A stretch of DNA of 64,000 nt from Modestobacter caceresii (GTDB taxonomy: Bacteria; Actinomycetota; Actinomycetes; Mycobacteriales; Geodermatophilaceae), in assembly GCF_000761485.1 (NCBI RefSeq), contig NZ_JPMX01000091.1, forward strand, positions 41,234 to 105,233, read 5' to 3'. This document shows positions 16,991-19,378 of this stretch, piece by piece. A model generated the notes under the pieces. That model saw only the letters and a list, made by a program, of their open reading frames with translations, had not been told where the DNA came from and did not search any database. Position 1 is the first letter of the stretch; every line of letters starts with the position of its first letter. The translations under genes and the position numbers were made by a program.

Positions 16991-17137
16991 CTCCGCCACC
17001 CAATCGGTGTCCACGAGGCTGTGTCAAGCGCCACACCCCGCGGGCGCCCAGCGCCGCACGGTCGGCGCAGCCCAGCGTCGTCTGCCGGGTGCAGCTCAGG
17101 ACCCGCGCCGACCGGCCCGGCGTGGAAGGCTTGGCCC

Positions 17138-19378
17138 ATGACCTCACGGGTGTGCGAAGGGCACGCTGTGCGGTCGCTGTTCCAGCCGATCGTGGACCTG
17201 TCCGACGGCGCGCTGGTGGCGGTGGAGGCACTGTCCCGCGGCGAGCCGGGGCCGCTGGAGTCCCCGACCGAGCTGTTCGCCGCGGCCGCAGCAGCCGGGA
17301 CCACCGCGTCGCTGGACGCCGCGTGCCTGCGCGCTGCGCTGCGCGGGGTCGCCGGCGCCGCGGAGCCGACCACCCTGTTCGTGAACATCGAGCCGGCGAC
17401 GCTGTCCACCCTCTCCCCCGCCGACCTGGCCGACCTGGCCGACCTCACGCCGGCCGGGGTGCAGGTGGTCCTGGAGGTCACCGAGCGCGACCTGCTCGAG
17501 CGCCCGGCCGACCTGGTCCGTGGCGTGCGGGGCGCGCGCGAGATCGGCTGGCGGGTGGCGCTGGACGACGTCGGTGCCGAGCCGGCCGGGCTCGCACTCG
17601 TGTCGTTCCTCCGGCCGGACGTGATCAAGCTGGACCTGGCCCTGGTGCGCGGACACACCAGCCTGCAGGCCGCCGCGGTGGTCAACGCCGTGCGTGCCGA
17701 CGCCGAGCGCTCGGGCGCGCTCGTCCTGGCCGAGGGGATCGAGACCACCGAGCACCTGGACCGCGCGCTGGCGATGGGCGCGCGACTCGGTCAGGGCTGG
17801 ATGTTCGGGCGTCCGGGGGACCTGCCGGCGGCCGGCATGCGGGGCCTGCAGCTGCGCCCGGCCACGCCCGCGCGAGGCGCCGGGGGAACCGGCCCGGGGA
17901 CGCCGTACGAGGTGCTCGCCGCCGCCTCGGGACCGCAGCGCGCCGGCGTGCCACTGCTCGCCTCGATGACCCGTCAGGTCGAGCGCCAGGCACTCCTGCT
18001 GGACGATCAGACCGTCGTCCTCGCGAACTTCCAGCACGCCGACCTGATGAGCGCGCGCACCCGCCGCCGCTACGAGACGCTCGGGAGCCTCACCGCCCTG
18101 ACCGCGGTGACCGGCGCGGGGATGCCCGACGAGCCCGCGCCGGGCGTGGTGGGCACCGCCCTCGATGCCGACGACCCGCTGACCGACCAGTGGGTCGTGA
18201 CCGTGGTCAGCCCGCACTTCGCGGCTGCGCTGGCCGCTCGCGAGGTCCCGGTGGACGGTCGCGGCGACCCGACCGCGGCCCCCGTCCCGGTGCGCTCGGC
18301 CGCGCGCCGACTCGACTACGTGCTGACCTACGACCGGCAGCGGGTGCTCGAGGCCGCCGGGCTGCTGCTGGAGAAGACCCGCCCGCCGGCCGGGACGGCG
18401 ACGCCGCTGCCGCTCCCCGCCCCGGCCCCTGGCGACCCCGTCGCGCGGGTCACCGAGGCCGACCTGCCGGACCTGATGCTCCGGGCCGTCTCGGTCGCGA
18501 GCAACGGGATCGTCATCGCCGACGCCCGCCGCCCCGACCTCCCGCTGGTCTACGCGAACGCCGCGTTCCTGCGGATGACCGGCTACCCGGAGTCAGAGGT
18601 GCTCGGCCGCAACTGTCGCTTCCTGCAGGGGGCCGACACCGACCGCAACCAGGTGCACCCGATCCGGCGGCGGCTGCTCGCCGGGCGCGACGTCGACGCG
18701 GTGCTGCTCAACTACCGGCGCGACGGCTCGGCGTTCTGGAACGAACTGCACGTCAGCGCCGTCCGGGACGCGCACGGCGAGGTCACGCACCTGATCGGCA
18801 GCCAGCTGGACGTGACCGCACGCGTCGACCGGGAGCGGCGGACGGCGTACCTGGCCCACCACGACCAGCTCACCGGCCTCCCCAACCGGGCACACGTGCT
18901 GGAGCACCTGAACCTGGAACTGCACCGCGCCCGACGCAGCGGCGGGAGCGTGGCGGCGGTGCTGCTGGACCTCGACGACTTCAAGGCGATCAACGACCGC
19001 TTCGGTCACGCCGTCGGCGACGCCGCGCTCGTCGGGGCGGCCTCTCGCCTGCGCTCGGCCGTCCGCGCCGGCGACCTGCTGGGCCGGCTGGGCGGCGACG
19101 AGTTCCTGGTCGTCCTCGCCGGCCTCCCCGCGTCCGGCCGGGCACGGCCGGACGACGGCAGCCGCCCGCCTGCGGAGGAGATGGTCCGGCGGGTGCAGGA
19201 GCACCTGCGTGCCGCCCTCGAGGCACCGCTCCAGCTGCCCGGGACGGCCCTGCGGATCCGCGCCAGCTCCGGGGCGGCGGTCTTCCCCGAGGAGGCCGAC
19301 GACCCGGCCTCGCTCCTCGCCTGCGCCGACGCCGCCATGTACCGGACCAAACGCGGGCCGGCGCGACGCCAGGACTGA
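17138..19378 (+). CDS. EAL-DICT-LOV-GGDEF cyclic-di-GMP signalling protein
   Basis: A 746-residue cytoplasmic protein joining opposing cyclic-di-GMP activities to a light sensor. EAL phosphodiesterase (about 10-225): E30-A-L, N83, E113/E116, D143-D144, K164, E199 and Q219 are present, so it looks active. DICT-type sensory domain (about 265-415), with VVLANFQHADLMSARTRRRY. LOV-type PAS domain (about 448-560): GRNCRFLQ (490-497) with photoactive C493, plus flavin-contact N525, N535 and Q556. GGDEF cyclase (565-740): GGDEF at 652-656 with an RxxD inhibitory site at 643-646. The ATG at 17138 is used; earlier starts would add non-homologous sequence. EAL at the N-terminus and GGDEF at the C-terminus is the reverse of the common order. 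Blue light probably tunes one or both activities (inference). Confidence 0.93.
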   Translation: MTSRVCEGHAVRSLFQPIVDLSDGALVAVEALSRGEPGPLESPTELFAAAAAAGTTASLDAACLRAALRGVAGAAEPTTLFVNIEPATLSTLSPADLADLADLTPAGVQVVLEVTERDLLERPADLVRGVRGAREIGWRVALDDVGAEPAGLALVSFLRPDVIKLDLALVRGHTSLQAAAVVNAVRADAERSGALVLAEGIETTEHLDRALAMGARLGQGWMFGRPGDLPAAGMRGLQLRPATPARGAGGTGPGTPYEVLAAASGPQRAGVPLLASMTRQVERQALLLDDQTVVLANFQHADLMSARTRRRYETLGSLTALTAVTGAGMPDEPAPGVVGTALDADDPLTDQWVVTVVSPHFAAALAAREVPVDGRGDPTAAPVPVRSAARRLDYVLTYDRQRVLEAAGLLLEKTRPPAGTATPLPLPAPAPGDPVARVTEADLPDLMLRAVSVASNGIVIADARRPDLPLVYANAAFLRMTGYPESEVLGRNCRFLQGADTDRNQVHPIRRRLLAGRDVDAVLLNYRRDGSAFWNELHVSAVRDAHGEVTHLIGSQLDVTARVDRERRTAYLAHHDQLTGLPNRAHVLEHLNLELHRARRSGGSVAAVLLDLDDFKAINDRFGHAVGDAALVGAASRLRSAVRAGDLLGRLGGDEFLVVLAGLPASGRARPDDGSRPPAEEMVRRVQEHLRAALEAPLQLPGTALRIRASSGAAVFPEEADDPASLLACADAAMYRTKRGPARRQD

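What the first reader, a model, noticed from the sequence alone, without database searches (positions are those of the whole stretch)
17138..19378. Dual EAL/GGDEF protein with a LOV photoreceptor and DICT domain in unusual order
The protein reads EAL - DICT - LOV - GGDEF. The EAL residues (E30, N83, E113/E116, D143-D144, K164, E199, Q219), the GGDEF loop (652-656), the RxxD inhibitory site (643-646) and the LOV cysteine C493 in GRNCRFLQ all look intact. LOV-GGDEF-EAL proteins are known, but usually GGDEF precedes EAL and the LOV is N-terminal. Here a DICT module sits in the middle and the phosphodiesterase comes first. The idea that blue light flips between synthesis and breakdown of cyclic-di-GMP is inference.
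Basis: partly seen in the sequence, partly recalled or inferred. Interest (0 to 1): 0.72.

Follow-up and report, generated by a model that had tools for sequence, protein, structure and literature searches.

The report
Light-sensing dual cyclic-di-GMP enzyme family
An actinobacterium of the Modestobacter group carries a protein that joins an enzyme domain for destroying a signal molecule, a sensor of unknown purpose, a blue-light sensor and an enzyme domain for making the same molecule; it belongs to a conserved family in which light most probably switches on the making half.

Summary
It is not a one-off: 90 distinct family proteins were compared, this one included. Best reading: two sensors on two outputs; blue light raises GGDEF activity through a fixed-length linker, while DICT governs the EAL half across a loose tether. 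A light-driven flip of both enzymes is unproven. New variant of a known kind.

The parts
17138..19378 (+). EAL-DICT-LOV-GGDEF gene, 746 aa plus stop
17124..17129 (+). Shine-Dalgarno-like GGAAGG, 8 bases before the ATG
   Evidence: kept in 4 of the 5 closest orthologues
17168..17815 (+). EAL domain, residues 11-226; catalytic residues intact, loop 6 non-canonical (residues 141-153)
17903..18373 (+). DICT domain with its C-terminal helix, residues 256-412 (Pfam match 267-369); predicted PLD/TrmB-like fold without HKD
18374..18469 (+). Proline-rich DICT-LOV linker, residues 413-444; least conserved of the eight stretches compared, pLDDT below 50 at 421-435
18473..18820 (+). LOV domain, residues 446-561
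18614..18616 (+). Codon of the photoactive cysteine C493 in GRNCRFLQ
18809..18871 (+). 21-residue LOV-GGDEF linker, D558 of DVT to L578 of DxLT
18854..19357 (+). GGDEF domain, residues 573-740, with RxxD I-site 643-646 and GGDEF 652-656

Best explanation
A two-sensor, two-output cyclic-di-GMP protein. Shown by sequence: a LOV domain with the flavin-adduct residues is joined to an intact GGDEF by a linker of exactly the short class (21 aa) of characterised LOV-activated diguanylate cyclases; the EAL-DICT half is joined to this by a long, variable tether that is disordered in the model. Inferred: it works as a homodimer; blue light forms the C493-FMN adduct, shifts the LOV dimer and the coiled coil, and raises diguanylate cyclase activity moderately (short-linker class); the I-site caps output. 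The EAL half, set by whatever DICT senses, lowers or senses c-di-GMP, so light moves the set point upward. Coupling of LOV to EAL, if any, is by docking or dimerisation rather than a rigid lever. Sister paralogues give a form with the strong-switch linker (35 aa) and a GGDEF-less form.
For: Domain order and residues. Best sequence and structure match in the PDB is 8c05, MsLadC, a LOV-activated diguanylate cyclase, over the LOV-GGDEF half. Linker 21 in 22 of 90, 35 in 68 of 90, no other length; in PMC10396304 (passages, and the first of three parts of the Results) 21- and 35-aa linkers go with about 15-fold and, at best, more than 10,000-fold light activation. Internal control: in the same proteins the DICT-LOV stretch has 12 distinct lengths among 21 and 20 among 67 (34-78 aa) and is the least conserved of the stretches compared; it is disordered in the model. 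LOV cysteine in 89 of 90, I-site in 88 of 90, exact GGDEF in 81 of 90, ten EAL sites in 88 of 90.
Against: Nothing biochemical was measured. 21 aa is, from general knowledge, also a very common PAS-GGDEF spacing; I ran no proper control on PAS-GGDEF proteins outside the family (a pattern scan of held loci, also found spacings of 31 three times and 43 once, in proteins I did not examine). Relatives are not independent samples. EAL loop 6 is non-canonical in each family member checked, so PDE activity may be weak or absent. GGDEF-less sisters keep LOV and the start of its coil in 10 of 10, which a LOV-serves-GGDEF-only model does not explain. 4 of 90 GGDEF motifs are badly broken (L094, L098, L101, L109), so there LOV is unlikely to drive synthesis.
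Confidence: 0.6

Rival explanations
1. Single-input flip: LOV controls both enzymes in opposite directions, so blue light turns net breakdown into net synthesis.
For: Both catalytic motifs intact in the window protein. Ten of ten GGDEF-less sisters fetched keep GRNCRFLQ and the start of the coil after LOV, although EAL is their only enzyme domain, so LOV probably acts on the EAL half there. SL2 (LOV, GGDEF, EAL) is a light-activated PDE (PMC8846402, passage read).
Against: The DICT-LOV connection is long, variable and disordered in the model. No evidence bears on opposite signs. Loop 6 casts doubt on PDE activity.
Confidence: 0.2
2. The EAL domain is not a PDE but a c-di-GMP-binding or dimerising module; the protein is a light-activated diguanylate cyclase with EAL-DICT as receptor or feedback part.
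For: Loop 6 lacks the glycine and the aromatic (or histidine) residue found in all 13 non-family EALs of the genome in which the motif was found; loop 6 is called essential for activity (PMC12943098, passage read).
Against: Metal, substrate and general-base residues are kept in 88 of 90 over deep divergence; functional EALs with partly deviating signatures are named (class IIa/IIb, PMC12900916, passage read).
Confidence: 0.15
3. LOV serves mainly as a light-tuned dimeriser, and the GGDEF-less sister heterodimerises through LOV and coil with the GGDEF-bearing paralogues, damping their cyclase activity.
For: G000 has three family members; 10 congeners have a GGDEF-less form with much of the 35-type coil kept.
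Against: No interaction data. In G000 the two paralogues are frame-broken in the assembly, so whether they are made there is unknown.
Confidence: 0.05

Closest known systems
LadC, LOV-activated diguanylate cyclases (MsLadC, AoLadC; PDB 8c05)
   Same: LOV with NCRFLQ, GGDEF, linker of 21 or 35 residues measured from D of D(V/I)(T/S) to L of DxLT; best PDB match of the C-terminal half
   Different: LadC as described in the parts read is LOV-GGDEF; here an EAL-DICT half precedes it
LOV-GGDEF-EAL proteins such as SL2 of Synechococcus elongatus
   Same: Blue-light LOV with both c-di-GMP enzyme domains
   Different: DICT added and EAL first; SL2 is reported as a light-activated PDE (PMC8846402, passage read); its domain order is as the passage lists it
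BlrP1, BLUF-EAL blue-light phosphodiesterase
   Same: Light sensor with EAL; 3gfx is among the structure matches
   Different: BLUF instead of LOV; no GGDEF, no DICT (recalled); no BLUF found in this genome
EAL-first EAL-GGDEF hybrid of Azospirillum
   Same: EAL at the N terminus, both domains conserved (PMC5845226, passage read)
   Different: In the passages read no LOV or DICT is named for it
EAL-DICT and MerR-DICT proteins of Actinomycetia
   Same: Same DICT family; EAL-DICT is the same N-terminal half
   Different: No LOV-GGDEF half; MerR forms are by their domains DNA-binding regulators

Membership tests
LOV photoreceptor | GxNCRFLQ with photoactive cysteine, plus flavin-contact N, N and Q | tested here: met
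   N492 C493 R494 F495 L496 Q497 N525 N535 Q556; cysteine in 89 of 90; many of the best PDB matches are LOV proteins
LOV photoreceptor | Binds FMN and forms a reversible 450-nm adduct | not testable with these tools
   needs purified protein
LadC (LOV-activated diguanylate cyclase) | LOV directly followed by GGDEF with a 21- or 35-aa heptad linker | tested here: met
   21 aa in the window protein; 21 in 22 of 90 and 35 in 68 of 90; heptad pattern itself not scored
LadC (LOV-activated diguanylate cyclase) | Light raises c-di-GMP synthesis | not testable with these tools
   needs assay
Diguanylate cyclase (GGDEF) | GG(D/E)EF, metal and GTP residues, I-site | tested here: met
   GGDEF 652-656, D611, F615, K616, N619, D620, R643xxD646
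c-di-GMP phosphodiesterase (EAL) | ExL, metal, substrate and general-base residues | tested here: met
   13 sites listed; 10 sites in 88 of 90
c-di-GMP phosphodiesterase (EAL) | Loop 6 DFG(T/A)GYSS | tested here: not met
   ALDDVGAEPAGLA; 10 of 13 other EALs of the genome with the motif found read DDFGxG. So it is called an EAL-domain protein here, not a proven PDE
DICT sensory domain (PF10069) | Profile match above curated cut-off | tested here: met
   36.4 bits against 23.8; 53 of 53 aligned slices match at E up to 1
PLD superfamily / TrmB sensor fold (for DICT) | Fold match to PLD-like domains | tested here: met
   2f5t Z 11.3, rmsd 3.2, 118 aligned; 49 chains at Z 8 or more; the 50 rows shown are PLD-like by title or by general knowledge. 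Foldseek itself weak: E 0.02, prob 0.96 for TrmB
PLD superfamily / TrmB sensor fold (for DICT) | Sequence-level relationship | tested here: inconclusive
   profile search of the PDB lists no PLD or TrmB chain at E up to 1; Pfam scan of 53 members lists no TrmB or PLD family at E up to 1
PLD superfamily / TrmB sensor fold (for DICT) | HxKxxxxD catalytic motif (enzymatic PLDs only) | tested here: not met
   0 of 90; so not a PLD enzyme

The most novel reading that the evidence does not exclude
Modestobacter-type bacteria carry a graded set of blue-light c-di-GMP devices descended from one gene: a moderate switch (21-aa linker), a sharp switch (35-aa linker) and a GGDEF-less form that pairs with the others through LOV and coil; DICT is a catalytically dead PLD-fold ligand sensor of TrmB type that sets the EAL half, so each molecule compares a chemical signal with light.
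Probability: 0.2. Interest if true: 0.75.

Novelty: new variant of a known kind. Interest (0 to 1): 0.5.

Why it matters
It gives a natural test of whether linker length sets the gain of LOV-driven diguanylate cyclases, since one genus carries 21-aa, 35-aa and GGDEF-less versions of one protein. It also offers a structural lead for DICT, which a 2022 review lists as having no discernible physiological purpose (PMC8846402, passage read), and would tie light to c-di-GMP in actinobacteria of exposed soil and stone (habitat from general knowledge).

Tried and rejected
Synteny: of 24 loci tested (22 distinct places, two held twice), only L002, from the 95% identical orthologue, shows the window's neighbours (Gfo/Idh/MocA, the start of DUF6807, the LuxR-type AAA regulator); the other loci show none of them or of the alpha/beta hydrolase (flanks of at most 1.5 or 4 kb). 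So no operon partner names the function.

DICT against the PDB by sequence profile: best row a ketoacyl reductase at E 0.008, taken as chance. Foldseek of the DICT model had nothing at E 0.001 or below; only the second look by VIA-align gave the PLD-like series. NCBIfam: among the 25 rows shown no equivalog reached its cut-off.

The first loop-6 pattern was wrong and found nothing. The corrected one gave no motif for 5 of 22 EAL loci (L151, L156, L159, L166, L167) and one chance match in L148. Of the 18 non-family EALs there, 13 gave the motif: 10 DDFG, and DDVGVGWSSL, DDVGAGFSSL, DDAGSGYAGL, so the V alone is not special; the lost glycine and aromatic are.

A claim that EAL is invariably intact was dropped: L116 (GGDEF-less) has E199 replaced by A. 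A claim that LOV is a constant part was limited: EAL-DICT proteins without LOV exist in the genus (L023) and beyond (L026). L022, labelled noLOV in the tree, runs to a contig end and its genome has a separate LOV-GGDEF match, so it is probably cut, not LOV-less. L021, labelled noGG, keeps part of a GGDEF. L024 has a stop in its match.

Rows dropped: L039 and L072, truncated as read, were left out of the tree and of the length statistics but kept in the counts. Eight duplicate cores were removed before the counts of 90. A2 held the window protein and 71 of the 72 unique named loci, L039 left out; A3 held 53 of 73 DICT slices. The ten GGDEF-less places fetched were picked because their match ended just after LOV, so having a LOV was a condition of choice; having its cysteine was not. 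They are not in the tree.

The tree is a quick one; L045, L046 and L110 are unstably placed, so which linker length is ancestral is open.

Paper searches for DICT returned 2, 1, 5, 2 and 0 papers; three of them (PMC7063779, PMC8612252, PMC8846402) were seen in passages, which describe no EAL-DICT-LOV-GGDEF protein. The library is open-access only; the recalled PNAS 2016 LOV survey (Glantz and others) was not read. The search with Geodermatophilus and Modestobacter among six terms listed 20 of 850 papers, none holding either genus name.

Full report
What is there. The frame at 17138-19378 (+) translates to 746 aa. Pfam places EAL 11-226, DICT 267-369, PAS_9 (the family holding LOV) 456-561 and GGDEF 573-740. 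The gene seems to stand alone: a Gfo/Idh/MocA oxidoreductase gene runs the other way upstream and a LuxR-type AAA regulator faces it downstream. The window lies in a genome (G000) of the Modestobacter group: eight proteins from unnamed genus-mates have the same core as named loci, seven titled Modestobacter and one Geodermatophilaceae bacterium.

It is a family. In the 23 genomes searched of the genus, own included, 16 have at least one full-length match and 8 have the orthologue at 68% identity or more, own included. In a drawn sample of 394 genomes of the class, own included, 14 match at E 1e-80 or better: 10 with a match over nearly the full length and 4 with a match confined to EAL-DICT.

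What is kept. Ten EAL sites are intact in 88 of 90, the other two being truncated reads; the LOV cysteine in 89 of 90; seven LOV sites in 88; RxxD in 88; exact GGDEF in 81. The nine exceptions are AGDEF twice, GGDAF, GGDEL, GGEEF with changed metal-site residues, and four badly broken motifs. So within this set EAL and LOV are steadier than GGDEF. GGDEF-less sisters point the same way: 10 of 10 taken from genus-mates have EAL, DICT, LOV with GRNCRFLQ and the start of the coil, then stop; they were chosen because their match ended after LOV; one of the ten has lost the EAL general base (Pfam on two of them and on L019). L019 and L020, of the same make, nest inside the long-linker clade, which suggests loss of GGDEF. 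Against this, EAL-DICT proteins without LOV also exist (L023, L026).

Linkers. Counted from D of DVT to L of DxLT, the LOV-GGDEF linker is 21 in 22 proteins and 35 in 68, nothing else. The 35 class lies in one group of full support and 18 of the 21-class proteins in another; three 21-class metagenome proteins are unstably placed. The first Results part of PMC10396304 describes these same two lengths for LOV-activated diguanylate cyclases, with about 15-fold activation for 21 and values beyond 10,000-fold for 35. The window protein has 21. In contrast the DICT-LOV stretch has 12 distinct lengths among 21 proteins and 20 among 67, from 34 to 78 residues, and is the least conserved of eight stretches; the full model (mean pLDDT 90.8, pTM 0.64) has pLDDT below 50 at 421-435. 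The caveats are shared descent and the lack of an outside control, but the neighbouring linker in the same proteins did not hold its length.

The EAL half. Loop 6 reads ALDDVGAEPAGLA here; across the 90, D(V/A/I)G is followed by mostly A, then mostly E or D, and none has the GYSS part. In this genome the 13 non-family EALs with the motif found keep a glycine followed by Y, F, W or H at those places. A 2026 paper states that loop 6 mediates dimerisation and is essential (PMC12943098, passage read); another groups functional EALs with partly deviating signatures as class II (PMC12900916, passage read). PDE activity is therefore likely but open.

DICT. The second model (179 residues, pLDDT 87.6) gives, in a second look at Foldseek's matches, the TrmB sugar-binding domain at Z 11.3 followed by TrmBL2, NucT, PPK1, Nuc, Zucchini, FAM83 and PLD3, one superfamily throughout the rows shown (that FAM83, PPK1, BJ-TSA-9 and the restriction enzymes belong there is general knowledge). 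The tool notes that models without a clear match typically reach a best Z of 7 to 8. Foldseek alone is weak and sequence profiles show nothing. There is no HKD (0 of 90). In the class, 36 of 296 genomes have a DICT match. Of 15 open frames that I chose to scan out of 29 new loci, 7 are MerR-HTH plus DICT, 5 EAL plus DICT (one EAL below cut-off), 1 DICT plus GGDEF and 2 DICT with no other family. An HTH-plus-sensor layout recalls TrmB. So DICT looks like a sensor in its own right rather than a relay for LOV; this is inference.

Genome context. G000 has three DICT matches, all in this family, 21 EAL and 30 GGDEF matches over cut-off, no BLUF match, and four NCRFLQ-type motifs, three in this family and one in a frame that goes on with GAF-like and SpoIIE-like sequence by eye. 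The other two family members of G000 are frame-broken in the assembly; whether by error or decay is unknown.

Judgement. LOV with GGDEF and EAL is a known kind: about 18% of bacterial LOV proteins in a 2014 census had GGDEF or GGDEF plus EAL (PMC4844311, passage read). EAL-first order is also known (PMC5845226, passage read). The combination, its two linker classes, its GGDEF-less branch and the DICT fold were not found in the searches named in Tried and rejected. Mechanism: light-gated synthesis is supported by analogy and untested; control of the EAL half is open.

Noticed in passing
L113-L122, L112, L019, L020 (C-terminal ends): GGDEF-less EAL-DICT-LOV proteins mostly end in a conserved tail (D/E)SPGARR(A/V) after the coil (8 of the 10 L113-L122). 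Purpose unknown; could be a localisation or partner tag.
   Followed up: partly
L111 and L112 (G000 C62 and C2): The other two family members in the window's own genome are split between reading frames in the assembly; the window gene is the only one of three in one open frame.
   Followed up: no
L145 (G000:C16, - strand): A fourth NCRFLQ LOV in the genome, in a long frame that looks by eye like LOV-GAF-SpoIIE phosphatase; not scanned with Pfam.
   Followed up: no
L060, L064, L069, L077, L080, L082, L088, L092, L106-L108: In these assemblies the 35-linker gene sits about 16-18 kb from a contig end (coordinates), as if near a repeated element such as an rRNA operon.
   Followed up: no
L170, L171, L172, L174, L175, L177, L181: MerR-HTH plus DICT regulators occur in the class sample, most of these in one family label, f41; with the TrmB-like fold they resemble TrmB-type regulators.
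   Followed up: partly
L078: A record titled Candidatus Melainabacteria carries a typical 35-linker family member amid actinobacterial sequences in the tree; perhaps a misbinned contig.
   Followed up: no
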